From Dokdonella sp. (lineage in GTDB: Bacteria > Pseudomonadota > Gammaproteobacteria > Xanthomonadales > Rhodanobacteraceae), in NCBI GenBank assembly GCA_016712865.1, contig JADJQH010000002.1, positions 806,001 through 870,000 on the forward strand: a stretch of DNA of 64,000 nt. The letters are read 5' to 3'. Below are positions 1 through 12,122 of this stretch, one piece after another. The notes below the pieces were generated by a model that saw only the letters and a list, made by a program, of their open reading frames with translations, had not been told where the DNA came from and did no database searches. The position numbers and the translations under genes were made by a program. Each line of letters starts with the position of its first letter. Within the stretch, counting starts at the first letter, position 1.

Positions 1-1752
1 CACCTGGTGCACCAGGCCGGTGCGGCCATGCCAGACCTCGGCAGCATCCGGATCGGACAACACCGGCACGATTCGGAAATTCGGGTGTTCGCGCGCCCAG
101 CCCTCGGCGAGATCGAGCATGTACAGGTCATCGACATTGCTCACGCCCCAGTACAGTTGCATGGGTCGTTGCACACCGCGGTGGAATGCGTCTTCAAGGA
201 TGCTCTTGATCGGCGCAAAGCCGGTGGCACCGGCCACCATCAGCATCGGTCGCGTGCCGGCATGCAGGGTGAAGCGCCCCAGCGGCCCTTCGAAATCGAG
301 CGTGTCGCCCACCTGCATGCGCTCGAACACGTGCGTGGTGAAACGCCCGCCGGGAATCAGGCGCACGTGCAGTTCGATGAACTCGTTCTCATGCGGCGGG
401 TTGGCGAAGGAGAACGCACGCCGCTCGCCATCATCGAGGATGATGTTGATGTACTGGCCGGCGACAAAACTGATGCGTTGGCCACCAGGCAAGGACAGCA
501 TGACCCGCATCACCGTGTCGCTCAGCCGCTCCATGCGCTCGACGCGGCCGCTGTAGCGGATGACCGACGCCGCAGCCGCACGCAGGGACTCGATCGGCAC
601 CTCGAACTCCACGTCCTCCAGTGCCACCGCACAGCACATCAGGGCCTTGCCTTCCGCGCGCATCTGCTCGGTCAGGGTATTGGGCTGGAATGCACCCTGG
701 TCGATGCGCCCGTTGAGGATGGTGCACACGCAGACACCGCAACCGCCGTTGCGGCACTCGAAAGGCAGGGTCAGGCCGGCGCGCAGGCCGGCCTCCAGCA
801 GGGTCTCGCCCTCGCGCGCGTTGACATGCTCGGGACCGGGATGCGCGGTCAACTGGTAGATGCTCTGCGCACCCGGCTTGCGCTTGCCTCGGGCAAGCCA
901 GGGAACCAGCACCAGCAGCGCGGTGCCGATCACGACCAGGGCCCAGACCGCGGCCAGCGACCAGGCCTTGAGCAATGGATAGACCGGCAGGAAGAACCAG
1001 TCCAGTGCCACCGTCACCACCTCGCTGGCGAGATCGGCCGCTCCGCCGTGACTGTGCACCGGCACCAGCAGCGCCATCGCCAGCAGCATGGCCATGAGGC
1101 CGACGCGGATCGCCTTTGGTGGATTGGTGCTGGCCTTGGGCACGCGCTGCACATGCACCCACATCAGCAACAGCAGCAACAAGGGCACGCCGATGTGAAT
1201 GAAGGCGAGCAGCGAAAACAGGCGATCGTTGACGCTGGATGGATCGATGAAATTGCGGATCAGCGCGCCACCGAATCCGGGCAGCCAGTCCATCCATTCA
1301 AAACTCGAAACCACGACGTACTGCGCCAGCTTGTCCCACGGCAGCATGTAGCCGTTGATGCCGGAAATGTAGACCAGCCAGATCAAGCCGACGCCAGTCA
1401 GCCACGAAAAGGTGCGGAAGCCGTGCATGCGATCGAAGGCGAAGTAGCGCAGCATGTGCAGCAGCATCAACACCACCATCGCATCCGAGGCGTAGCGGTG
1501 AACGCTGCGCAGGATGCCGCCGAAGTACCACTGGTTCTCGGTCAGCGCCTGCACCGAGCTGTAGGCGCCGCTGACACTGGTGTCAAAGAACGCATACAGG
1601 TACAGGCCGCTGCCGGCGACGATCCAGAACAGGAAAAAGGTGATCGAACCCAGGTGGTAGAACGGATTCAGGCGATCTCCAAAGGCGCGGTTGAAGAGGG
1701 CTTCGACCAGCATGAACAGTCGGCGCAGCGCGCCCTGCAGTGCAGCGATCAT
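1..1752 (-). CDS. Cytochrome b / 2Fe-2S ferredoxin / FAD-NAD(P) reductase fusion (partial)
   Basis: Partial gene; the reading frame is open for 584 codons and leaves the window at base 1. Residues 30-280 are a diheme cytochrome b N-terminal half: His85/His99 and His186/His200 are 14 apart in two membrane helices, as in bc1/b6 proteins. Residues 300-390 are a plant-type 2Fe-2S ferredoxin (Cys333, Cys338, Cys341 and a Cys at 373-374). Residues 395-584 are a ferredoxin-reductase-like module with RAFS (445-448, flavin) and GATGFAP (508-514, NAD(P)H). I infer electron transfer between NAD(P)H and membrane b hemes or quinone. Its ATG overlaps the preceding stop as ATGA, so it is the next gene of the same operon. 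The fusion looks unusual; the domains are clear but the function is inferred. Confidence 0.85.
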   Translation of the reverse strand, partial: MIAALQGALRRLFMLVEALFNRAFGDRLNPFYHLGSITFFLFWIVAGSGLYLYAFFDTSVSGAYSSVQALTENQWYFGGILRSVHRYASDAMVVLMLLHMLRYFAFDRMHGFRTFSWLTGVGLIWLVYISGINGYMLPWDKLAQYVVVSSFEWMDWLPGFGGALIRNFIDPSSVNDRLFSLLAFIHIGVPLLLLLLMWVHVQRVPKASTNPPKAIRVGLMAMLLAMALLVPVHSHGGAADLASEVVTVALDWFFLPVYPLLKAWSLAAVWALVVIGTALLVLVPWLARGKRKPGAQSIYQLTAHPGPEHVNAREGETLLEAGLRAGLTLPFECRNGGCGVCVCTILNGRIDQGAFQPNTLTEQMRAEGKALMCCAVALEDVEFEVPIESLRAAAASVIRYSGRVERMERLSDTVMRVMLSLPGGQRISFVAGQYINIILDDGERRAFSFANPPHENEFIELHVRLIPGGRFTTHVFERMQVGDTLDFEGPLGRFTLHAGTRPMLMVAGATGFAPIKSILEDAFHRGVQRPMQLYWGVSNVDDLYMLDLAEGWAREHPNFRIVPVLSDPDAAEVWHGRTGLVHQV

Positions 1753-3185
1753 GATTGCCCCTCCTTCGCCACGGATTGCGGCGCACGCAACGCCTTCCAG
1801 ACAACAATCACGAACAGCAAGCCTCCGATGATGGCGATCAATCCGCCCATGCCCATCAACCCCATGCCGGCGATTTCCGCCTTGCTGCGCAAGATCTGTT
1901 CGGCGCCGGCAACCTTGCGCTGCACGCCATAACCACCGGACCACACCAGGCCGATGATGTGCATGAGCTGGCCCGCCCCATACAGGCTGGGTTGCCAGCG
2001 CGCCATGCGCCCCTGCGGCGTGCGGTAACCCAGTTTCGGCAGCAACAGGTAGACCAGTCCCATCAACGCGAGGGTCACGCCAACGATGCACCCGTGGTAA
2101 TGCGCCGGAATGCGCACATTGCTGCCGCTGATGAAGATGCCGATGATTCCGCCGGATGCAAACAGGATCATCGAGGCGATCAAGGCGGCGCGCAGTGCGT
2201 CGTGCCCGGGCTGCGGCGAGCGGCGTGATCCGACCAGGCCAATCACCACGGCCAGGCCAATCGGCACGATGGAAATGCCGCCGCCCAGGCGCATGGCCCA
2301 GGTGTGCAGGTCGCGATGCTCGACCGTGCTGACATCGTGGGCGAGGTAGGCCCAGGGCGTCACGAACACGCTGACCAACGCCAGCATCAGCAGCAGCAGG
2401 GCAATGCGCGGACTCAGGGGTATGCGTGCCCCAATCTCGCTGGCCAGCCACAGCCAGGCGACCAGCATGAGCAGGGTCCAGGTGAATTGCAGCGCATGGC
2501 CACCGCCCCAGAAGGCGATTTCGTAGTAGGTCTGGGAATCCAGTCCGCCCGGAGTCAGCCACAGCGATGCCGCAAAGGCGAGCAAGGCAACCGCAGTGGC
2601 GATCACGCTCGCATTCAGGCCAAAGCGCAGCACGTCACTGCCGTCAAACGCCATTCCGAGTGCCGGTGCTGCAATCAGGCTGCGCAAGACCAGCAGCGCC
2701 GCCGCCACGCCCAGCACAGCCAGCCCGTACAGGAACATGCCGCCATCCAGCACCGGAATGTAGTTGGCCATGATCGGCAATCCGCTGCCAGTGAACGGAG
2801 CGATACCGAGCATGGCGGTACCTGCACAAGCCAGCGCCAGGGCCAGCCAGCCAAGCGCTGGCGCGCGCGGCCGGCTGCTCAGGCTCCACAACATGCCAGC
2901 CAGGGCCAGGAACCAGACCAGCACGGAAAGATCGACATGCACCACCAGGGCGACGCGGAAAAAATCCTCCACCGGCAGCATCGCGTTGATGCCCGGAGTG
3001 CGCGATGCCACCAGCAGGATCGAATAGACACCGGAAACGATCAGCGCGAGCAAACCGAGCCACAACCAGCCACGCACCAGGCTGCGATCCGTGTCGGCGG
3101 CAATCGCCAGCGTGTAGGGCGAACGACTGGATGCCGTCGTGCCCGCGACTGGTCCGCCGTCCTGCGCTGCGGATACGCCGCTCAC
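1749..3185 (-). CDS. Heme-copper oxidase subunit I-like protein lacking the helix VII His-His pair
   Basis: A 478-aa polytopic protein related to COX1/CcoN/NorB. It keeps the helix II heme ligand (His83, HVDLSVLVWF), the helix VI His230 (WGGGH) and the helix X pair His362/His364 (AHYHG). Aligned by eye with cbb3 CcoN, the helix VII GPHH motif is TPWA at 276-279, so two of three CuB/FeB ligands appear absent. Nearby histidines (AHDVSTVEHRDLH, 282-294) are in a different register. Known family members reduce O2 or NO; this one may carry two hemes but no normal binuclear centre and could be purely electron-transferring. It sits between two cytochrome b fusion genes, with 4-bp overlaps at both ends. 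Family assignment is confident; function is unknown. Confidence 0.8.
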   Translation of the reverse strand: MSGVSAAQDGGPVAGTTASSRSPYTLAIAADTDRSLVRGWLWLGLLALIVSGVYSILLVASRTPGINAMLPVEDFFRVALVVHVDLSVLVWFLALAGMLWSLSSRPRAPALGWLALALACAGTAMLGIAPFTGSGLPIMANYIPVLDGGMFLYGLAVLGVAAALLVLRSLIAAPALGMAFDGSDVLRFGLNASVIATAVALLAFAASLWLTPGGLDSQTYYEIAFWGGGHALQFTWTLLMLVAWLWLASEIGARIPLSPRIALLLLMLALVSVFVTPWAYLAHDVSTVEHRDLHTWAMRLGGGISIVPIGLAVVIGLVGSRRSPQPGHDALRAALIASMILFASGGIIGIFISGSNVRIPAHYHGCIVGVTLALMGLVYLLLPKLGYRTPQGRMARWQPSLYGAGQLMHIIGLVWSGGYGVQRKVAGAEQILRSKAEIAGMGLMGMGGLIAIIGGLLFVIVVWKALRAPQSVAKEGQS

Positions 3186-3685
3186 AGCAGGATGATCCGG
3201 CGTTCGGCGGCATCGAAATCCACGACCAGGATCTCGGCCGGCGCCAGCGTCACGGTTTCGCTGCGCGTGTAGTCGAAGCCTTCGCTGCGCGCATCGTCCT
3301 TCATGCGCACCTCGATGGCATGCGCGCCGGCAGGCACTTCGATGCGGTGATAGACCACCGCCGCGCCGTCACTGGAAAGTCCCGACGGCTGGGCAACTTG
3401 TCGATAGGCGAGCACGCCATCGACATCGATCTCGACCGTGAGCGGCGAGCGTTCACGCGGGCAACTGACGGGTGCGCGCATGTTTGGCGGAAGCTTGGCC
3501 AATTCTTCGGGCGTCAGCTCCACGCAGTCGCCGAGCACCTTGCCCTGGTGGCTGATGCTGAGCTTGATCAGTGCACTGTCGGCCGGCAGGTTCTGGTAAC
3601 TCGGCCAGCGCGTGAAGACGAGTATCACCGCGGCGAGCGCGGCATACAGCACGGCCTGTCCCATCCACACGAGGGGCTTGTTCAT
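3182..3685 (-). CDS. Small membrane-anchored protein of the cytochrome b/HCO cluster, function unknown
   Basis: A 167-aa protein that I do not recognise. One hydrophobic segment near residues 8-25 (QAVLYAALAAVILVF) suggests an N-terminal anchor with the remaining ~140 residues in the periplasm. The soluble part has a Cys pair at roughly 54 and 75 (GDCVELT, PVSCPRE) and looks beta-rich. It overlaps both neighbours by ATGA, so it is probably translated with them and may be an accessory subunit or assembly factor of the surrounding complex. No heme, Fe-S or copper motif is visible. Confidence 0.75.
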   Translation of the reverse strand: MNKPLVWMGQAVLYAALAAVILVFTRWPSYQNLPADSALIKLSISHQGKVLGDCVELTPEELAKLPPNMRAPVSCPRERSPLTVEIDVDGVLAYRQVAQPSGLSSDGAAVVYHRIEVPAGAHAIEVRMKDDARSEGFDYTRSETVTLAPAEILVVDFDAAERRIILL

Positions 3686-5193
3686 GGATTTCCTCCTTGG
3701 CTCGTATTCTTGCGCACGCTGTCGATGGCCGCATCAAGCGGGCCTTGCTCATGCCTGCCAAGCATCACGACGCGATGGCGATCCGGCGGTACCGTCCTGC
3801 GCAGGTGCGGCTCGCGCGTACCCAGCATGCGCTCACGCGTCCACTGGTTGCCCAGGCGAAACTCGCAGGAAGCATCAGCGCATCCGCAGACAACCACGCC
3901 CGCGGCGCCGCCACGCAGCGCATACTCGATGAAGGAAGGCGGCAGCAAGCCGATGCAAAGCAGGTTGTAGCCAAGCACGTCCACACTCCTGTTGCGCTCG
4001 ACATCGATGCCGTGGCGACAACCGAACACGACTACGGGCGCCGTTTCCGCGTGCGCCAGGTCATCGACCAGTTTCCTGCGCAGCGAATCCACGGATTGTT
4101 GCGGCATGTCGATGCCATTCACCAGCTCGCTGACACTGCGGAATGGAGTCGCTGAGGGGCAGGCTCCTGCGCAGATCCCGCAACTGGCGCAGCGTTCCAC
4201 GGCCACCACGGCGATCTGCTTGCCCGGTTTTCCGTCCGGATGGGCTTCAAGGGTGATTGCCGAATAGGGGCAATCATCCACGCAGCGACGGCAACCGTTG
4301 CAGTTGTCGGCATCGACCACGGCAACCGGCTCCGTGTGCCGCGCGTAGAACACCGGCATCGCCAGCAGCACGCCAAACAGGACTGCAAGCAGGCTCCAGA
4401 ACACCGCTGCCGACAGCGCCGTTGCCAAGGGCAATGGATGCAGCACGAACCAGTCGAGCGCCAGCGCCACCGGTACGCGGTCCAGGTCCGCCGGCGCCCC
4501 GCTGGTCACCGGCCAGGCCAAGGCCATTGCGGCCAGAAACACCAGTTGTCCGAGCAGCAAGGCACATGGCGGCAGGATGCGTGGCCGCGTCACGCGCTGC
4601 AGGTGGAACCACAGACCAAACAACAGCATCAGGGGGACGCCAAGATGGATGAATACCAGCAAGGAAAAGAAGCGGTCACTGACTGCACCGCTGTCGAGGA
4701 AGTTGCGGGCCAGCGTGCCATCGAGCATCGGCAGGGCATCGATCAGTTCCGCGCTTGCAGTGGCCGCATACTGCCCGAGCACATCCCAATTGAGCCAGAA
4801 GCCGCCGATGCCGCTCACGTACATGAAGGCAAGCAGCGGAACACCGGTGAGCCAGGTCATGGCACGAAAGCGCGAGTAGTGGCCCAGCACCCACTCCCGC
4901 AGCAGATGCAACAGCGTGAACGTGACGAACAGGTCAGCCGCATAGCGATGCATGCTGCGCAGCCAGCCGCCGAGCCAGGGTTGCTCGTCGGACAGTCGTT
5001 TGATCGACTGCCAGGCGCCGTCTGTCGATGTATCGAAATGAATGTAGAGATAGATGCCGCTGACCAGCAGTGCGGCGAACATCAGGCAGGCCAGCGCACC
5101 GAGATTGCGCATGGGATTGGTCCCGCCCGGAAACAGCGGATCGATGATTTCCTCGATCCTCAGCCAGGCCGCTCGAACGGGACCCGAACTCAT
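3682..5193 (-). CDS. Diheme cytochrome b fused to 2x[4Fe-4S] ferredoxin and MvhD-like domain
   Basis: A 503-aa membrane iron-sulfur protein. Residues 30-280 are a cytochrome b N-terminal domain with His82/His96 and His183/His197 as bis-His ligands for two b hemes. Residues 290-350 carry two [4Fe-4S] motifs (Cys298/301/304/308 and Cys335/338/341/345). Residues 385-460 resemble the delta subunit of methyl-viologen-reducing hydrogenase (MvhD), with Cys392, 413, 436, 438 and 443. MvhD domains pass electrons between hydrogenase or formate dehydrogenase and HdrA; here the domain is tethered to membrane hemes. I chose the ATG at 5193 because it overlaps the upstream stop as ATGA; an ATG at 5229 would give a 40-bp overlap. 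Role inferred: low-potential electron exchange with the quinone pool or the adjacent HCO-like subunit. Confidence 0.85.
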   Translation of the reverse strand: MSSGPVRAAWLRIEEIIDPLFPGGTNPMRNLGALACLMFAALLVSGIYLYIHFDTSTDGAWQSIKRLSDEQPWLGGWLRSMHRYAADLFVTFTLLHLLREWVLGHYSRFRAMTWLTGVPLLAFMYVSGIGGFWLNWDVLGQYAATASAELIDALPMLDGTLARNFLDSGAVSDRFFSLLVFIHLGVPLMLLFGLWFHLQRVTRPRILPPCALLLGQLVFLAAMALAWPVTSGAPADLDRVPVALALDWFVLHPLPLATALSAAVFWSLLAVLFGVLLAMPVFYARHTEPVAVVDADNCNGCRRCVDDCPYSAITLEAHPDGKPGKQIAVVAVERCASCGICAGACPSATPFRSVSELVNGIDMPQQSVDSLRRKLVDDLAHAETAPVVVFGCRHGIDVERNRSVDVLGYNLLCIGLLPPSFIEYALRGGAAGVVVCGCADASCEFRLGNQWTRERMLGTREPHLRRTVPPDRHRVVMLGRHEQGPLDAAIDSVRKNTSQGGNP

Positions 5194-6134
5194 GATGGGC
5201 GCAGGCGATTGCCGCGATGGGCGTGCCATTCTTTCACGGCCAGCCAGAGCATCAACAAGATGAACGTCGCGCCACCGGCCAGTTCGATGTACAGCGAATA
5301 ATCGGTGCGATAGCGGCCGGTTTCCGGGTCATACACCGAACAAAGGATGCGCACCTTGTCGAGCAGGTCGCTCCACGAGCGCGTCTCCCTGATCAGCGAA
5401 CCACCGAGCAGGCGCTTGAGCGGCTCACCCAGGGAATCGGGACTGAAGGTATCGCCGAGAACCTGCTGGCGAATGATGCCGTCGGCATCGAGCACGCTCA
5501 CCTGCAGGGTGTGATCGAAGCCCATCGGCGTGGCCATGAAACTGAACCCGAAATTGCGCGCAATCTCGGCAACATCGTCCTTGTCCGGGCTCAGAAAGCG
5601 CCAGTTGGCGTCACGTATGGACTGGCGCGCGGCGTACTCGCGCATCGCCGTGGGCGAATCCGTGGGTTGGTCAAAGCCGATGCTGATGACGTTGAATTGA
5701 TCAGTACCGAAGCGACCGCGCATTGCGTCAACGGCCTTGCGCAAGGCGCGTGTGCTGTTCGGGCAAATGCGGAAACACGCGGTGTAGACGAAATTGACCA
5801 GCAAGGGTTTGCCGCGAAAGTCCGACAGGGAAACCGCCTGGCCATCCTGGTCGAACAGGGTGTGATCCACGGGACGCTGGCCGACAACCGCCATGCTGTC
5901 GCGCAGGGCCTTTTCCTGATCGAGGCCTGTCACCGTCGGCGTTGGCGGCGCCTCCACTTGCGCAGGTGCAATCCGATTGCTGTTGTCCGCCACCGGCGGA
6001 GGCTTGGCCAGGGAACCACTGGAACCAAACGCGAGGCTGGCAGCAACCAGCACCAGCGGTATTCGACCAGCACATCGCTGATCAAGTTGTCTTCCTGGCG
6101 AAAGCCGGGATCCACTTGGATCTCCATGGCACAT
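5190..6134 (-). CDS. SCO1/SenC-family copper chaperone with C-terminal membrane anchor
   Basis: A thioredoxin-fold SCO/SenC protein, a family that inserts copper into or reduces CuA sites. The copper motif is CFRICP (CxxxC) and the third ligand is the His of GFDHTLQV. Unusually there is a second membrane segment near the C terminus (YIELAGGATFILLMLWLAV), so the domain is held at both ends or anchored from the C end. The CuA subunit II is upstream in the same cluster. The start is uncertain: the ATG at 6134 lies inside a REP-like repeat and gives a polar leader before the hydrophobic stretch; a GTG at 6053 is the alternative. The 3' end overlaps the next gene as ATGA. Confidence 0.75.
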   Translation of the reverse strand: MCHGDPSGSRLSPGRQLDQRCAGRIPLVLVAASLAFGSSGSLAKPPPVADNSNRIAPAQVEAPPTPTVTGLDQEKALRDSMAVVGQRPVDHTLFDQDGQAVSLSDFRGKPLLVNFVYTACFRICPNSTRALRKAVDAMRGRFGTDQFNVISIGFDQPTDSPTAMREYAARQSIRDANWRFLSPDKDDVAEIARNFGFSFMATPMGFDHTLQVSVLDADGIIRQQVLGDTFSPDSLGEPLKRLLGGSLIRETRSWSDLLDKVRILCSVYDPETGRYRTDYSLYIELAGGATFILLMLWLAVKEWHAHRGNRLRPS

Positions 6135-6211: not shown

Positions 6212-7111
6212 TCACGATCGCAACGCAGCGTCCACACACGCGAAGATGAGAACCGCGTTGAGCTGCACCAGTGAAGCGAGAAAGCAGGCAATGGCTGCCT
6301 TGCGGTTTTGCAGTTTGACCAGCGACCAGGCCTTGTACACGAACCACGCGCTGCCCAGCAATGCGCCAATCAGGTAGGTGATTCCGGCACCCGCAAAAAT
6401 CGGCAGCACCGAGGCCACTGCCAGGGCAATGCTGCTGGTCAACACGATCCGCGATGCGCGTGCCTCGCCAAACACGACCGGCAGCATGGGGATGCCGGCG
6501 GCTGCGTAATCTTCGCGGTTGGCAATGGCCAGGCTCCAGAAATGCGGCGGCGTCCACAGAAAGAGAATGAGCGCGAACGACCACGACAGCGGCCCCAAAG
6601 CGGGATCAGCCGCGGCGGCACCGGCAAGGACGGCAAAGCTGCCGGACAAGCCACCGATGACGATGTTGGTCCAGCTGCGCCGCTTCAACCACACCGTGTA
6701 GACAATCGCGTAGAAGAACGCGCCAAGGAAAATGAACGCGGCCGATTGCGCATTGACGATTTTCCATGCGCTCGCCACCGCAAGCGCCAACATCGCCGCA
6801 AACACCAGCAACCACCACGGCTGGTGCGGCAAGGCACCGGTCACGAACGGTCGCGAACGCGTGCGCGCCATCAATCGGTCGCTCTGGTATTCGTGGTAAT
6901 GGTTGAACGCTCCGGCAGCCGCCGATGCAAGCAGCGTGGCCAGCGCCATCACCAGCACCTGCCAGGCGCTGGCGGAACCGGGGGAGATCACATAGCCAAC
7001 CACGGCCGTGATCATGATGAGCACGCCGATGCGCAGCTTGAACAGGCTGAGTACATCGCGCAGCACGCCGGCAAGCGAACGTTTGGACGAGGGAATGCAG
7101 ATGGAGTTCAT
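6212..7111 (-). CDS. ctaB: Protoheme IX farnesyltransferase (heme O synthase)
   Basis: A 299-aa UbiA-family integral membrane prenyltransferase that adds farnesyl to heme b to make heme O for heme-copper oxidases. The first substrate motif is NHYHEYQSDRLMARTRSRP, the family pattern in slightly divergent form, and the second region is LFLWTPPHFWSLA. About eight or nine hydrophobic helices are visible and the length is normal. It lies between the CuA-oxidase pair and the SCO/cytochrome b cluster on the same strand; ctaA for the next step (heme O to heme A) is on the opposite strand at 9860. Confidence 0.95.
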   Translation of the reverse strand: MNSICIPSSKRSLAGVLRDVLSLFKLRIGVLIMITAVVGYVISPGSASAWQVLVMALATLLASAAAGAFNHYHEYQSDRLMARTRSRPFVTGALPHQPWWLLVFAAMLALAVASAWKIVNAQSAAFIFLGAFFYAIVYTVWLKRRSWTNIVIGGLSGSFAVLAGAAAADPALGPLSWSFALILFLWTPPHFWSLAIANREDYAAAGIPMLPVVFGEARASRIVLTSSIALAVASVLPIFAGAGITYLIGALLGSAWFVYKAWSLVKLQNRKAAIACFLASLVQLNAVLIFACVDAALRS

Positions 7112-7235: not shown

Positions 7236-8936
7236 TCAGCTCAGGCCCCACAAGGTCGACAGATACTTCCAGTTGATGAAGTAGTAGAGGACGAAGGCGG
7301 CCAGGAAGATCATGGCGAGCACGAACGTGCCGGGGGCCGCGAAGCCCAGCGATCCATAGCTTTGTGCGGCAGCCGAGGGTGCACCCACCGGGATCGGCGT
7401 GGGCTCGCTGCTGATCCTGGTCTGCGCAACACGCTTGCCCCACAGCAGGGAGCCCACGGTCAGGTAGATGAAGATCGCGCCACCGGCAATGGCGGCAATG
7501 CCGGCGATGCCGACCAGCCCCATCATCAGGTAGGCCGCACCCGGCCATTCATAGGCCAAGGCCGCGCCACTGAAGGCCATGTCCCAATGACGGCGTGAAA
7601 CACCCAGGGTTCCGGCACCCATCATCACCAGGCAGAAGAAGTACATGGACAGGCCGAACAGGTAAGGCTGCCACTTGGCCAGGGTCGGATTGATGATTTC
7701 GCGCTTGAACAACACCGGTATCAGGAAATAGGTCAGCGCCATGAACGAGAGCGTGGTGCCGATCACCACGGTGGCATGGAAGTGCCCGGGCACGTAGATC
7801 GTGTTGTGGATGATCATGTTGAGCTGCTCGGTACCCATCATCACGCCGGAGATTCCACCGAGGAAGCCGAAGCCGATGATCGAGATGAACACGCCGGAGA
7901 ACGAGGGATTGCCCCACGGCGCCTTGCGCAACCACTCGAACAGCCCCTTGTTGTAGCCCTTCGCACGCTGCGCCACTTCCATGGCGCCGGGAATGGTGAG
8001 CCCGTGGATCATCGAGGCCAGCACGGCGAAGTACATGAAGTAGCTGGTGTTGAGCACCTTCCACTCCACGCTCATGCCGGGATCGGACAGGATGTGGTGG
8101 GCGCTGGCCAGTTGCAGGAACACGATGTAGAGGAGGAACGCACCACGGCTGACCCGCTCCGACATCGGCTTGGCGCCGAACACCACGGCGGCGACCAGAT
8201 ACCAGATGGAAATGTGGGCGGCGACGTTGATCTGCTGCGATGAGTGTCCGAACGCCCACCAGATCACGCGGTAGATCAGGGGATCCACGTGCTCGACCCA
8301 GCCCATCGACTGCATCCAGGTGGGAATCAGGATGATCGCGCCGGAGGCGATGGTGAACACAGCAATGATCGCCGCAGTGATCGCACCAAAGGTGACCAGC
8401 GGCACCGAACCCTGGTAGGTCTTCTCGCGCTTGGCTACCACCAGGGTGCCGAAGAACACGAAGCAGGCGATCAGTGCGCCCACCGCAAACAGGATCAGGC
8501 CGAGGTAGAACGAGGGCGCTGCCATCATCGGCACGTACGAGGTCATCATCACGCTCGATGCACCGTCATAGACCGCGTAGTTGTTCATGACCGAGCCGAT
8601 CACCATCAAGGCAAACGCCAACCATGCGACCTTCGGCGTGGCAATCCGGCATCGCAACAGCGTCGATGAACAGAAATACAGCACCGCGATCTCGAAGAAG
8701 ATGATCCAGTAGACCAGCATGTCGAGGCCGTGCGCGGTCAGCACCTGGTAGAAGGTGGCCGCTTCCAGCCAATGCACGCTGGGCCAGCGCGTGAGCACGA
8801 TGCCGATGGCGAGAATGCCACCGATGAGCAGGAAGATGACGCCTGCCACGGCATTGGCGATCACCAGTTTTTCAGCCTGGGATTCGAACTGCAGCCCGGA
8901 ACGCGGGCAGGTCCGATAGGTGGTGTTATTGGACAT
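7236..8936 (-). CDS. B-family-like heme-copper oxidoreductase subunit I without active-site Tyr (sNOR-like)
   Basis: A 566-aa polytopic subunit I aligning well by eye with Thermus ba3 oxidase. Ligands are present: His69 (low-spin heme), His231, His280-His281 (copper/iron B) and His385/His387 (GHFHA). The ba3 motif GHPIVY, whose Tyr is cross-linked to the copper-ligand His, reads GHSSQQ here, putting Gln235 at the Tyr position. True O2 reductases keep a Tyr; loss is a hallmark of NO-reducing HCO families, including the sNOR described in nitrifiers, which also has a CuA subunit and a neighbouring senC gene. I therefore favour NO reduction, but the family could only be fixed by phylogeny. Overlaps the upstream subunit II gene by 11 bp. 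Confidence 0.85.
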   Translation of the reverse strand: MSNNTTYRTCPRSGLQFESQAEKLVIANAVAGVIFLLIGGILAIGIVLTRWPSVHWLEAATFYQVLTAHGLDMLVYWIIFFEIAVLYFCSSTLLRCRIATPKVAWLAFALMVIGSVMNNYAVYDGASSVMMTSYVPMMAAPSFYLGLILFAVGALIACFVFFGTLVVAKREKTYQGSVPLVTFGAITAAIIAVFTIASGAIILIPTWMQSMGWVEHVDPLIYRVIWWAFGHSSQQINVAAHISIWYLVAAVVFGAKPMSERVSRGAFLLYIVFLQLASAHHILSDPGMSVEWKVLNTSYFMYFAVLASMIHGLTIPGAMEVAQRAKGYNKGLFEWLRKAPWGNPSFSGVFISIIGFGFLGGISGVMMGTEQLNMIIHNTIYVPGHFHATVVIGTTLSFMALTYFLIPVLFKREIINPTLAKWQPYLFGLSMYFFCLVMMGAGTLGVSRRHWDMAFSGAALAYEWPGAAYLMMGLVGIAGIAAIAGGAIFIYLTVGSLLWGKRVAQTRISSEPTPIPVGAPSAAAQSYGSLGFAAPGTFVLAMIFLAAFVLYYFINWKYLSTLWGLS

Positions 8937-9486
8937 TTCCGGCCTCCGCCTTGACGTAGATTCGCCCGACCATGGTGTGGTGGCCGATACCGCAGAATTC
9001 GTTGCACACCACCGAATAGGTACCGCTCTGGTTTGGCGTGACCGTCACCACGTGCTCGTATCCGGGCACGACCTGGATGTTGATGTTGGCCGGCTGCAGC
9101 GAGAAGCCGTGGTTGTAGTCCATCGAGGTCAGGTGCAGGCGATAGGTCTGCCCCTGTTGCAGTTCGAGGATCGGCCAGAAATTCCACAAGCGCGCGATCA
9201 TGTACACGTCGCTGCCGGGCGGCGGCGCGACAACCGGAGTCTGGAAATCGGTTTCAACCCGCACCGTGTACTTGTCGACCACGGCCTGGGCCTTGGCGGC
9301 GAATTGTTCGCTGGTGGTCTTGTAGGTTTCGGTGGAAAGATTTTGCTTTCCGTACATGTGCCAATAAATCATCATGAAGAACATGATCATGCACCAGACG
9401 AATGCGATGGCTATCCAGGTGCCTTCCACGCGATCCAGCGGGTGCTTCCACCAGAGTCGTTCGGCGGGCGGTAAAATTGCGCTCAT
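8926..9486 (-). CDS. CuA-containing oxidase subunit II
   Basis: A 186-aa protein with one N-terminal membrane helix (about residues 24-42) and a periplasmic cupredoxin domain. All CuA ligands are present: His126 (DYNHGFS), then Cys161, Glu163, Cys165, His169 and Met172 in CNEFCGIGHHTM. It takes electrons from a soluble donor such as cytochrome c and passes them to subunit I. Its short, single-helix form matches ba3/sNOR-type subunit II rather than two-helix aa3 subunits. A GGGGA ribosome-binding sequence precedes the ATG. Confidence 0.92.
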   Translation of the reverse strand: MSAILPPAERLWWKHPLDRVEGTWIAIAFVWCMIMFFMMIYWHMYGKQNLSTETYKTTSEQFAAKAQAVVDKYTVRVETDFQTPVVAPPPGSDVYMIARLWNFWPILELQQGQTYRLHLTSMDYNHGFSLQPANINIQVVPGYEHVVTVTPNQSGTYSVVCNEFCGIGHHTMVGRIYVKAEAGNVQ

Positions 9487-9519: not shown

Positions 9520-9675
9520 CTACTTCGCGACCGGAATGGTCAGGATGTCGATGACGCCCCAAAGGACGTAAACGACCATGGGCACCATCACTCCGATGAA
9601 CAGGAGCAGGAACGGGTTGTCGAGCAGCTTCTGCATCATCGGGATTTTTTCGTCGTGTTCCTGGGTGGTTTCCAT
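9520..9675 (-). CDS. 51-aa single-helix membrane peptide, first gene of the oxidase operon
   Basis: A short frame of 51 codons plus stop. A charged N terminus (METTQEHDEK) is followed by a hydrophobic helix spanning about residues 21-47. GGAGG lies about 6 nt before the ATG. It is 33 bp upstream of subunit II on the same strand. The size and topology recall the small IIa/CbaD subunit of ba3 oxidases or the small orf in sNOR clusters; the sequence itself is not diagnostic. Confidence 0.7.
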   Translation of the reverse strand: METTQEHDEKIPMMQKLLDNPFLLLFIGVMVPMVVYVLWGVIDILTIPVAK

Positions 9676-9755: not shown

Positions 9756-9769
9756 TTGACTTGGGTCAA
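9756..9769. promoter_or_regulatory. DNR/NNR/FNR-type operator dyad
   Basis: Perfect palindrome TTGAC-TTGG-GTCAA. CRP/FNR-superfamily regulators bind TTGAT-N4-ATCAA (FNR) or TTGAT-N4-GTCAA (NO-responsive DNR/NNR). It lies 80 bp before the start of the 51-aa gene and about 90 bp before ctaA, so it could serve either side. It would fit NO or low-oxygen control of the oxidase operon. Confidence 0.6.
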
Positions 9770-9859
9770 GCCAGGCGCGAATCGACGCGGCATGGGTGAC
9801 AATTCGGGTCATCTCGGACATCCTGCGTGGGATTGCCGCAGCCCCACGGAAGCCGAGAA

Positions 9860-10933
9860 ATGACCGAGTCCGCACACGATCCGAAGTCGCAACGCAGCCC
9901 GCGCGAGAGACCACGCGCCGTCGGCTGGTGGCTCCTGAGTTGCTGCGCCGTGCTGCTGACCCTGGTGATGGTGGGTGGCGCAACGCGGCTGACCGAATCA
10001 GGGCTTTCCATCGTCGATTGGAAGCCGGTGACCGGTGTACTGCCGCCGATGGGCGATGCGGCGTGGCAAGCGGAATTCTCGCGCTACCAGACCAGCCCGC
10101 AGTTTGCCAAGGTCAACCAGGACATGTCCCTCGGTGACTTCAAGGTGATTTTCTGGTTCGAGTTCTTCCATCGGTTGCTGGCGCGCCTGCTCGGCCTCTG
10201 GTTCGCCTTGCCGCTGCTCTGGTTCTGGTTGCGCGGCGCCATTCCCGCGCGCTTGCGCTGGCCCCTGCTCGGCATCCTCGCCCTGGGCGCGGCGCAGGGT
10301 TACATGGGCTGGTACATGGTCAAGAGTGGTCTGGTCGACATTCCACGGGTCAGCCCCTATCGCCTGGCCGCGCATCTCGGGCTTGCGCTGCTGGTCTACG
10401 CGTTGATGCTGCGCGTGGCCATCGGTCTGCTGCTTGATCGCGTGCCGGCTGCGGATTCGTCAACGGCACAACGCTGGCCGCGCGCACTCCTGCTGGTCAT
10501 GGTCGCCACCACCATCGGGTTTGGTGCCTTCGTCGCCGGATTGCGCGCAGGCCACATGTACAACACCTTTCCGCTGATGGCCGGGTACTGGGTTCCGCCG
10601 GGGATGGCTGCCATGGAACCGTTCTGGCGCAACCTGTTCGAGAATCCGGTGAGCGTGCAGTTCATCCATCGCATCATCGCGCTGAGCACGCTGGCGGTGA
10701 CCTTGTGGGTCTGGTGGCGCATGCGCAATGCGGCGCAGGACAAGGCGCAGGCCAGATCACGCCTTGCGCTCTTGTTGATGGCGCTCATCCAGGTAACGCT
10801 GGGCATCTGCACCCTGCTGTGGGTGGTGCCGGTGTGGCTGGGAACCCTGCATCAGGGCGGTGCCGTGCTTCTGCTCAGCGCGGTCATCGTTGCCGGCTGG
10901 TGCTGGCGCACGCGTGATCACTCGCCAAGATAA
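9860..10933 (+). CDS. ctaA: Heme A synthase
   Basis: A 357-aa CtaA/COX15 membrane protein that oxidises the C8 methyl of heme O to formyl, giving heme A. Four conserved heme/substrate histidines are visible: FFHRLL, AAHLGL, FIHRII and LHQGG. Eight membrane helices in two four-helix halves are evident. I chose the ATG at 9860 (MTESAHDP) over an in-frame start 33 bp upstream, because the longer leader is not typical. Divergent from the oxidase operon; its 3' end overlaps the convergent SCO gene by 16 bp. Confidence 0.95.
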   Translation: MTESAHDPKSQRSPRERPRAVGWWLLSCCAVLLTLVMVGGATRLTESGLSIVDWKPVTGVLPPMGDAAWQAEFSRYQTSPQFAKVNQDMSLGDFKVIFWFEFFHRLLARLLGLWFALPLLWFWLRGAIPARLRWPLLGILALGAAQGYMGWYMVKSGLVDIPRVSPYRLAAHLGLALLVYALMLRVAIGLLLDRVPAADSSTAQRWPRALLLVMVATTIGFGAFVAGLRAGHMYNTFPLMAGYWVPPGMAAMEPFWRNLFENPVSVQFIHRIIALSTLAVTLWVWWRMRNAAQDKAQARSRLALLLMALIQVTLGICTLLWVVPVWLGTLHQGGAVLLLSAVIVAGWCWRTRDHSPR

Positions 10934-11562
10934 GCGCGCAGCGAGTTGAACTGGCGCAGCATCACGCCGGGTTGATGCGGTGATGGCAATGCCGCCACCG
11001 CGCGCCCCTGCGCATCGATGACAATGATCGAGGTCGAGTGATCCATGCTGCGCATGCCGCCGGCATCGCGGTTCTCCGCATAGGCGATGCCCAGTGGTCC
11101 GGCGAGAGCTTCGAGCTGATCGGCGGAGCCGCTCAATCCAATCAGCGAGTCGTCGAAGAACGCAAGGTATCCGGCCATGCGTTCGGGCGTATCGTTGGCT
11201 GGATCGACGCTGACGAACACCATTCGAGGAATGCCGCCTGTCTGCCCCGATTCGCGCATCAGCGCGCGCAGGGTCTTCATCGACTGCAGGGTCATCGGGC
11301 ACACGTCCGGGCACTGCAGGTAGCCGAAGAACAGCAGGCTCCATTGGCCCTTGAAATCCTCCGCGGAGAACGGCTTGCCGCTCTGCTCGCGCATGCTGAA
11401 GTCCGGAAGTGCGCGCGGCTCGGGCCAAAGCAGCGGCTTGAGTTCCGCCGGCGCGGATTCCCAGCGTGACTGCGCGAGATGCCGATTGGCCAGCAGCGCG
11501 ATGACCACGCCAAGGATCAGCATCGAGATGAGCAGGATGATGCGGGATGACTTGCTACGCAT
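10918..11562 (-). CDS. SCO1/SenC/PrrC-family copper chaperone
   Basis: A 214-aa protein with an N-terminal anchor (SSRIILLISMLILGVVIALL), then a thioredoxin-like domain with CPDVCP (CxxxC) and the conserved His in MDHST. Such proteins deliver copper to CuA of cytochrome oxidases. It differs from the other SCO gene at 5190 in having one N-terminal anchor only. The ATG at 11562 (MRSKSSR) places the anchor at the N terminus; an in-frame start 162 bp further upstream would add a non-conserved leader. Convergent with ctaA. Confidence 0.9.
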   Translation of the reverse strand: MRSKSSRIILLISMLILGVVIALLANRHLAQSRWESAPAELKPLLWPEPRALPDFSMREQSGKPFSAEDFKGQWSLLFFGYLQCPDVCPMTLQSMKTLRALMRESGQTGGIPRMVFVSVDPANDTPERMAGYLAFFDDSLIGLSGSADQLEALAGPLGIAYAENRDAGGMRSMDHSTSIIVIDAQGRAVAALPSPHQPGVMLRQFNSLRAYLGE

Positions 11563-11699
11563 GGTCCGATCACGTCCAGCTGCGGTAACGGGTATTGCGT
11601 ACCCTACCCGGCCTCTACTGCCATGACGTTGACTTCGATCAATGCCGACGGCCCGGTGCCGTGCCATGTTGGATCCCCGAACAACCCGGCTCGCGATCC

Positions 11700-12122
11700 A
11701 TGGACTTGCCCAGCCTCCTGCCACACGTCAACGCATCACTCAATGCCACCGCCATGATCCTGCTTGGCTATGCACGGGTGATGATCGCGCAGCGGCAGAT
11801 CGACAGACACCGCCGGGCGATGATTGCCGCACTGGCTGTATCCGGGCTGTTCCTGGTGACCTACATCACCTATCACCACATCGCACCCATCTTCGTTTTC
11901 CGTGGATACGGCTGGATTCGCCCGGTCTACTACGCATTGCTGATCAGTCACGTGGTACTGGCGGCGCTGGCCATACCCATGATCCTGGTGACTGCCGTGC
12001 TGGGCCTGCGTCGGCGCGATTCCCGCCATCGCGCCATCGCACGCTGGACGTGGCCGGTGTGGATGTACGTGTCGGTATCGGGTGTCGTCGTCTACCTGCT
12101 GCTGTACCAGATCTATCGCTGA
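11700..12122 (+). CDS. DUF420 (CtaM-like) membrane protein
   Basis: A 140-aa protein with four hydrophobic helices and the DUF420 pattern: N-terminal LPHVNASLNATA, then ITYHHIAPIFVFRGYG and YYALLISHVVLAALAIP. DUF420 includes CtaM/YozB, needed for heme A-containing oxidase maturation in Gram-positives. Its place beside ctaA and an SCO gene fits oxidase biogenesis. The ATG at 11700 gives the normal family N terminus; the frame is open further upstream. Confidence 0.85.
   Translation: MDLPSLLPHVNASLNATAMILLGYARVMIAQRQIDRHRRAMIAALAVSGLFLVTYITYHHIAPIFVFRGYGWIRPVYYALLISHVVLAALAIPMILVTAVLGLRRRDSRHRAIARWTWPVWMYVSVSGVVVYLLLYQIYR

What the first reader, a model, noticed from the sequence alone, without database searches (positions are those of the whole stretch)
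1..5193. Candidate undescribed membrane redox complex: two diheme cytochrome b fusions around a degenerate HCO subunit
Four translationally coupled genes encode a cytochrome b with 2x[4Fe-4S] plus MvhD-like domain, a small anchored protein, an HCO-like protein, and a cytochrome b with 2Fe-2S plus FAD/NAD(P) reductase. The domains are read directly from the sequence. Known MvhD proteins serve HdrA-type electron bifurcation; known cytochrome b proteins serve quinone chemistry. I infer a complex linking NAD(P)H and low-potential ferredoxin-like centres to b hemes, possibly bifurcating or confurcating, or feeding an NO/O2 reductase. I know of no characterised complex with this composition.
Basis: partly seen in the sequence, partly recalled or inferred. 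Interest (0 to 1): 0.92.

Follow-up and report, generated by a model that had tools for sequence, protein, structure and literature searches.

The report
Cytochrome b module of NO reductase
The four genes are the tail of a larger operon that most likely encodes an unusual nitric oxide reductase together with membrane cytochromes that may exchange electrons with it; the set recurs in many bacteria that carry nitrite reductase genes and could fill a gap in how some of them remove toxic NO.

Summary
In detail: four coupled genes encode the domains described. But they are the 3' part of a longer operon: small TM protein, CuA subunit II, subunit I, CtaB, SCO, then the four. Subunit I has Gln where oxygen reductases have the cross-linked Tyr (89 of 89 sequences, own included), the published eNOR signature. 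P0002 relatives co-occur with cd1-type nitrite reductase genes (30 of 34 genomes against 43 of 335), lie within about 20 kb of them in 13 of 34, and 30 of 88 upstream regions carry an FNR/DNR-type box. P0002 is a b6-plus-subunit-IV-like cytochrome b; its invariant Asp-Trp aligns with the Qo-site PEWY motif. The HCO-like protein has the HCO fold and heme ligands but lacks two CuB histidines. The pieces separate in other loci, so an obligate four-subunit complex is not supported. Best reading (0.45): an eNOR-type NO reductase with a dedicated membrane module exchanging electrons between cytosolic NAD(P)H or Fe-S donors, quinone and the reductase. Rivals: copper/heme assembly, an O2 reductase, or quinol-driven reverse transfer. 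No activity was tested. New variant of a known kind.

The parts
9756..9769 (-). FNR/DNR-type palindrome TTGACCCAAGTCAA upstream of the operon (consensus recalled)
   Evidence: read directly; perfect boxes upstream of 30 of 88 relatives, 0.115 expected from shuffles
9520..9675 (-). small single-TM-like protein, 51 aa, first gene of the operon
   Evidence: read from the sequence; no Pfam family; a small hypothetical gene precedes subunit II in Defluviimonas, Thermus and Thermomicrobium (similarity not tested)
8926..9486 (-). subunit II with CuA motif CNEFCGIGHH
   Evidence: COX2 Pfam and CoxB NCBIfam matches; motif
7236..8936 (-). HCO subunit I, B-family-like, GHSSQQ in helix VI: eNOR-type catalytic subunit
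   Evidence: COX1 210.7 bits; Gln aligned on the Tyr of T. thermophilus ba3; Gln in 89 of 89 sequences, own included
6212..7111 (-). CtaB, heme O synthase
   Evidence: UbiA Pfam match; homologue annotated heme o synthase in Defluviimonas
5190..6131 (-). SCO-family protein (start codon not fixed)
   Evidence: SCO1-SenC Pfam, 65.3 bits; homologue annotated SCO at the same place
3682..5193 (-). P0002: cytochrome b (b6 plus subunit IV-like) + 2x[4Fe-4S] + FlpD/MvhD domain
3182..3685 (-). P0003: N-terminal helix anchor plus beta-sandwich-like domain with conserved C54 and C75
   Evidence: AlphaFold2 pLDDT 95.8; conservation
1749..3185 (-). P0004: HCO-like protein, heme His kept, two CuB His lost
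   Evidence: COX1 62.9 bits; model pLDDT 88.9, best PDB matches HCO subunit I; ligands
1..1752 (-). P0001: cytochrome b + Fer2 + FAD/NAD(P) reductase; runs 183 bases past the window start
9827..10933 (+). CtaA, heme A synthase, divergent to the operon
   Evidence: COX15-CtaA Pfam, 361.2 bits

Best explanation
The window holds an operon for an eNOR-type nitric oxide reductase (CuA subunit II, subunit I with Gln in place of the cross-linked Tyr, CtaB and SCO for its heme and copper) followed by a membrane electron-exchange module. In that module two diheme cytochromes b, each with a PEWY-like Asp-Trp, carry cytosolic redox domains: one a ferredoxin/MvhD chain, the other a 2Fe-2S/FAD/NAD(P) chain. 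I infer that electrons from cytosolic donors and/or quinol pass through the b hemes, perhaps via the CuB-less HCO-like protein and the periplasmic beta-sandwich protein, to the NO reductase under low O2 or NO stress. Shown: gene order, domains, ligands, the Gln signature, association with cd1-type genes. Inferred: NO reduction, membrane sidedness, direction of electron flow, physical contact.
For: Gln in 89 of 89 subunit I sequences (own included; L071 and L112 are one contig), the criterion used for eNOR in PMC8756737 (passages). cd1-type gene (PF02239 E<=1e-60) in 30 of 34 genomes with a P0002 match against 43 of 335 without; against 7 of 19 listed P0002-less members of the same families, p 3e-4; within about 20 kb on the same contig in 13 of 34 (positions; 2.1 of 30 expected within 25 kb). 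G000 has NirK over cut-off and four COX1 genes, a ccoN, an aa3-type CtaD, subunit I and P0004, so no cNOR/qNOR was found. On a Thermus plasmid a Q-type subunit I, 44% identical, lies about 3 kb from nirS and beside an Rrf2 regulator; HB5018 has a DUF542 gene there. FNR/DNR boxes in 30 of 88. Gene 1 and the small protein follow SCO in 66 of 80 named loci. Conserved heme/cluster ligands and the PEWY-like motif.
Against: Thermus and Thermomicrobium plasmid stretches have the Q-type subunits I and II without the cytochrome b module, so the catalytic pair seems not to need it there. Three of 34 genomes lack cd1 and NirK at these cut-offs (G149, G158, G265). No eNOR reference sequence was held, so clade membership was not tested. 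In Accumulibacter UW-LDO-IC the 'ba3' genes changed little and rose with oxygen (PMC6446978, passages), the reverse of UW-1. 58 of 88 upstream regions have no perfect box. Nine of 80 named loci show no subunit I; some are cut by contig ends, but L159 and L173 are full stretches. Assembly genes (CtaB, SCO) sit right beside the module.
Confidence: 0.45

Rival explanations
1. The module is an assembly device for the reductase: the cytochrome b / Fe-S protein reduces Cu(II) (as CcoG does for cbb3 oxidase), and the anchored beta-sandwich and HCO-like proteins help place copper or heme.
For: Gene 1 and the small protein follow SCO directly in 66 of 80 named loci. The HCO-like protein overlaps or abuts CtaA in stretches of other lineages without cytochrome b fusions. 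The small protein is modelled as a beta-sandwich with two invariant Cys, and H46 and M69 nearly invariant. CcoG function is recalled, from no call.
Against: No FixG/CcoG family among the 18 Pfam hits or the 25 listed of 87 NCBIfam hits of P0002. Two b hemes, a PEWY-like site and an MvhD domain are more than a copper reductase needs. A second version carries an NAD(P)H reductase.
Confidence: 0.25
2. Subunit I is an O2 reductase after all (annotated cbb3-/ba3-type), and the module feeds a high-affinity oxidase.
For: Database annotation; an Accumulibacter paper calls it ba3 oxidase (PMC6446978, passages); the B-type sNOR of Nitrosomonas europaea was argued to be a possible oxidase (PMC6967387, passages).
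Against: The Tyr of the known O2 chemistry is Gln in 89 of 89; strong link with cd1-type genes.
Confidence: 0.12
3. Reverse or bifurcated flow: quinol is oxidised at the PEWY-like site; one electron goes to the reductase, the other through the b hemes to NAD(P)+ or the ferredoxin/MvhD chain, giving low-potential reductant.
For: b6-plus-subunit-IV-like build of P0002 with invariant Asp-Trp at the Qo motif, the same Asp-Trp in at least 95% of 72 P0001 relatives; cytosolic-type FAD/NAD(P) and MvhD ends. Accumulibacter loci carry both fusions, and a 'novel cytochrome' was proposed there for anaerobic reducing power (PMC2289847, one passage; that it is this fusion is my recollection of its reference 4).
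Against: No Rieske protein or c1/f-type cytochrome among the cluster proteins scanned; the motif is LDWF/Y, not PEWY. No HdrA-type flavin domain found in P0002.
Confidence: 0.12
4. The four proteins form a free-standing obligate complex independent of the reductase.
For: Translational coupling; 27 of 80 named loci have exactly the full order including all four.
Against: Components separate in other loci; subunit I accompanies the module in 71 of 80 held loci.
Confidence: 0.05

Closest known systems
eNOR nitric oxide reductase
   Same: Subunit I Gln signature, CuA subunit II upstream, B-family-like sequence (PMC8756737)
   Different: Followed here by the cytochrome b/Fe-S/MvhD, beta-sandwich, HCO-like and cytochrome b/FNR genes; no account of these as an eNOR module appeared in the listings or the passages read; the main eNOR paper was not held
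Cytochrome b6f / bc1 complex
   Same: Four heme His, match through helices A-F, Asp-Trp on the PEWY motif
   Different: Fused to Fe-S/MvhD or FNR domains; no Rieske or c1/f among the cluster proteins scanned
HdrA2-MvhD / MvhD (heterodisulfide reductase partners)
   Same: Ferredoxin plus FlpD/MvhD region resembles the HdrA2 C-terminus and MvhD chains
   Different: No HdrA flavin domain; fused to cytochrome b
Cytochrome b6 + 4Fe-4S-type + FlpD protein RME88945.1
   Same: Same domain list in a table of PMC8756737
   Different: Listed there only among neighbours or partners of a cytochrome c domain; no function given
CcoG (FixG) copper reductase of cbb3 oxidase (recalled)
   Same: Membrane Fe-S protein beside HCO genes
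   Different: No CcoG family match in the hits seen; has b hemes and MvhD

Membership tests
eNOR | Gln in place of the conserved helix-VI Tyr of subunit I | tested here: met
   Q235 in the window protein; 89 of 89 sequences, own included; criterion from PMC8756737
eNOR | Cupredoxin (CuA) subunit II next to subunit I | tested here: met
   CNEFCGIGHH motif, COX2 Pfam
eNOR | Groups with reference eNOR sequences in a tree | not tested
   no reference eNOR sequence held; the Q clade (26 rows) is only shown apart from four Y-type rows, 100/100, with long-branch warnings
eNOR | Reduces NO to N2O | not testable with these tools
   needs enzyme assay
Oxygen-reducing B-type (ba3) oxidase | Active-site Tyr in helix VI | tested here: not met
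   Gln instead
Cytochrome bc1/b6f | Four heme-b His in cytochrome b | tested here: met
   H82/H96/H183/H197 invariant in 18
Cytochrome bc1/b6f | PEWY-type Qo motif in the EF loop | tested here: inconclusive
   invariant D-W aligns on E-W of b6f subunit IV, E 8.3e-5; Pro and Tyr not kept
Cytochrome bc1/b6f | Rieske iron-sulfur protein in the gene set | tested here: inconclusive
   none among the cluster proteins scanned with Pfam; no genome-wide search made
HdrA/MvhD flavin bifurcation | MvhD-type domain with conserved Cys | tested here: met
   C392, C413, C438, C443 invariant in 18; an MvhD chain hit at E 2e-12
HdrA/MvhD flavin bifurcation | HdrA FAD domain | tested here: not met
   P0002 matches only the C-terminal part of HdrA2 (571-767 of 777); no flavin Pfam in P0002
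CcoG copper reductase | FixG/CcoG family match | tested here: inconclusive
   not among 18 Pfam hits nor the 25 listed of 87 NCBIfam hits of P0002
Functional heme-copper oxidase (P0004) | Three CuB His | tested here: not met
   H230 kept; at the helix-VII HH columns the window protein has Ala and Tyr; of 36 relatives 1 has His at the first and 8 at the second
Functional heme-copper oxidase (P0004) | Heme His ligands and HCO fold | tested here: met
   H83, H362, H364 in 30 of 30 and 36 of 36; model TM-score about 0.6-0.7 to HCO subunits I

The most novel reading that the evidence does not exclude
The operon encodes a quinol-oxidising electron-bifurcating machine without a Rieske protein: at a Qo-like site of the b6/subunit-IV-type cytochrome, one electron of quinol goes to the CuA/eNOR branch and reduces NO, while the other climbs through two b hemes to NAD(P)+ or to a ferredoxin/MvhD chain, so that NO (or O2) reduction drives formation of low-potential reductant.
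Probability: 0.08. Interest if true: 0.93.

Novelty: new variant of a known kind. Interest (0 to 1): 0.62.

Why it matters
If right, many Beta- and Gammaproteobacteria whose gene is annotated as a 'ba3/cbb3-type oxidase' carry an NO reductase with its own electron-exchange module. That bears on N2O budgets and on a stated puzzle: PMC6446978 (passages) reports 'ba3' genes in all Ca. Accumulibacter genomes, norZ in few and norBC in none. The six Accumulibacter-named loci here that include subunit I, of ten, all carry the Gln. A cytochrome b joined to ferredoxin/MvhD or NAD(P)H domains beside an HCO would be a new wiring for NO respiration and can be tested by one deletion.

Tried and rejected
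Standalone complex: rejected as obligate because the pieces separate. Ordinary ba3 oxidase: the Tyr is absent. sNOR: that family is listed with Asn (PMC8756737). Copper-site reading of the small protein: Foldseek gave no convincing relative (best E 9e-4, TM 0.37), so its role stays open. P0004 against PDB sequences: no hit at E<=1. Own-genome NosZ (one model, TIGR04246): none over cut-off; own-genome cd1: none; NirK present. Paper searches for the module gave nothing beyond a table entry; the main eNOR paper and a quinol-oxidation review are not held.

L112 and L071 are the same contig by length and identical subunit I, so counts hold this duplicate, and one search also counts the window's own protein. 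The association tests are not corrected for phylogeny beyond the family comparison, whose 19 genomes are only those shown in truncated listings. The 13-of-34 linkage is a hand comparison of two listings, one truncated. Shuffles keep single-base content only. The Q tree has long branches.
Full report
What is there. The window lies in one contig of a 3.75 Mb genome. The four genes of the finding are on the minus strand and overlap by start-stop junctions. The last gene runs 183 bases past the window start. A fifth gene beyond it, outside the window, encodes a protein with five CXXCH motifs and a dockerin-like stretch.

The wider operon. Upstream of gene 1, on the same strand, lie SCO (overlapping gene 1), CtaB, an HCO subunit I, a CuA subunit II and a 51-residue protein with one hydrophobic stretch; CtaA is divergent. 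A Defluviimonas plasmid shows the order small gene, subunit II, subunit I, heme o synthase, SCO, gene 1, small protein, then a hemerythrin gene.

What the neighbour is. Subunit I aligns with T. thermophilus ba3 oxidase, with Gln on the ba3 active-site Tyr (which residue is the active-site Tyr is recalled and in PMC8756737). In 89 sequences that cover the site (own included, one duplicate contig), His, Gln at +3 and Gln at +4 are invariant, as are the two helix-VII His; the helix-X His are present in 88 of 89. [quoted passage not shown] I could not place the proteins in a tree with reference eNORs; a 30-row tree sets the Q-type sequences apart from four Y-type ones with long-branch warnings.

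Distribution. P0002 relatives occur in 34 of 369 genomes sampled from the class, own included (26 of 272 genera). Forty-one loci were mapped. A scan of named genomes kept the best 80 of at least 574 relatives, including Ca. Accumulibacter, Ramlibacter, Rubrivivax, Comamonas, Piscinibacter, Curvibacter, Herbaspirillum and Sulfuritalea. Of these 80, subunit I is seen in 71, the small protein in 77, HCO-like in 61, the FNR fusion in 69; 27 show the complete order exactly as in the window and 66 have SCO, gene 1 and the small protein in a row.

Association with nitrite reduction. A strong PF02239 match (E<=1e-60) is found in 30 of the 34 genomes with a P0002 match and in 43 of the other 335. Within the same families, 7 of 19 P0002-less genomes seen in the listings have it. 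NirK over cut-off shows no such association (1 of 34 against 17 of 335). Comparing positions by hand, 13 of 34 have a PF02239 gene within about 20 kb on the same contig (G052, G120, G195, G204, G252, G256, G264, G305, G327, G371, G378, G379, G398); random placement within 25 kb predicts about 2 of 30. PF02239 also covers NirF/NirN-type proteins (recalled), so this counts the cd1 cluster, not NirS alone. The window's genome has no cd1 match but a NirK over cut-off and four COX1 genes: a ccoN over cut-off, one with CtaD as its best family (643 of 670.75 bits on the matched stretch only), subunit I and P0004. On Thermus plasmids a Q-type subunit I, 44-46% identical, sits beside an Rrf2-type regulator, with nirS annotated about 3 kb away on pTF24b and a DUF542 gene on pHB5018d, without the cytochrome b module in the stretches read.

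Regulation. A perfect TTGAY-N4-RTCAA box lies at 9756-9769, and such boxes occur in the 450 bases upstream of subunit II in 30 of 88 loci against 0.115 expected from base shuffles. The match to FNR/DNR sites is by recalled consensus. PMC6446978 (passages) also places the Accumulibacter 'ba3' operon under an FNR motif.

The proteins. P0002 and P0001 each keep four heme-type His. The P0002 profile matches bc1 cytochrome b across 17-278, and a profile of its helices D-F hits cytochrome b6f subunit IV (E 8.3e-5) with its invariant Asp-Trp on the Glu-Trp of PEWY. P0001 has the same Asp-Trp, conserved in at least 95% of 72; it was not searched by profile. That the Fe-S/MvhD and FNR domains face the cytosol is inferred from the topology of cytochrome b (recalled); the hydropathy scan found too few clear helices to settle it. 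The ferredoxin/MvhD part resembles HdrA2 and MvhD. P0003 models as one helix and eight strands (pLDDT 95.8), read as a beta-sandwich, with no close solved relative. P0004 models with high confidence (pLDDT 88.9) and its best PDB matches are HCO subunits I. It keeps H83, H230, H362, H364 and H409 in 30 of 30 (H409 in 30 of 36 of the wider set). At the helix-VII His pair it has Ala and Tyr; of 36 relatives 35 lack the first His and 28 the second.

Mechanism. I read the set as an NO reductase with its own electron-exchange module: cytosolic NAD(P)H or Fe-S donors and/or quinol, b hemes, then the reductase. The two cytochrome b fusions may be alternative inputs, as one relative in the genus keeps only the FNR type (L073). 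Direction, partners and activity are inferred. The main rival is an assembly role, favoured by the position after CtaB and SCO and by the HCO-like protein's place beside CtaA elsewhere (L091, L092, L098, L099).

Literature on a carrier. PMC6446978 (passages) reports 'ba3' genes in all Accumulibacter genomes, norZ in few and norBC in none. Expression evidence is mixed: UW-1 expressed 'ba3' highly in anaerobic phases; in UW-LDO-IC changes were small and in the direction of higher expression with oxygen. Of ten Accumulibacter-named loci here, six include subunit I, all Q-type. No held paper contains the whole words Accumulibacter, eNOR and nitric oxide reductase together. PMC2289847 mentions a 'novel cytochrome' in such sludge (one passage); that it is this fusion is my recollection.

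Verdict. Observation confirmed; interpretation partly supported; a new variant of a known kind (an eNOR-type operon with a module that I did not find described in the searches listed).

Noticed in passing
L004 7696-9723 (just outside the window, downstream of gene 4): A 675-residue protein with five CXXCH heme motifs, a dockerin-like stretch and a C-terminal hydrophobic helix; a relative was seen in 1 of 80 named loci (L112, the same contig as L071) and in L072 of the same genus.
   Followed up: partly
L091, L092, L098, L099: The HCO-like gene overlaps or closely precedes CtaA with no cytochrome b fusion in the held stretch; L091 also holds a large COX1 gene. This suggests a role tied to heme A oxidases more widely.
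   Followed up: partly
L111 12101-12505 and L084 10966-11361: A hemerythrin-family gene (Pfam) follows the small anchored protein where no HCO-like gene was seen.
   Followed up: partly
L198 and L199 (Thermus thermophilus plasmids): Q-type HCO subunits, annotated as cbb3- or b(o/a)3-type oxidase, beside an Rrf2 regulator; a DUF542 gene on pHB5018d and nirS on pTF24b nearby.
   Followed up: partly
L105 4582-7995: Two tandem cytochrome b/Fe-S/MvhD genes in one cluster (G588).
   Followed up: no
window 10918-11724: A second SCO1/SenC-family gene on the minus strand (Pfam 125.2 bits), behind CtaA.
   Followed up: no
L146 and L155: Subunit I is split over two reading frames, perhaps a sequencing error or a broken gene.
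   Followed up: no
window 11629 and 19223: Two further perfect TTGAY-N4-RTCAA boxes in the window.
   Followed up: no
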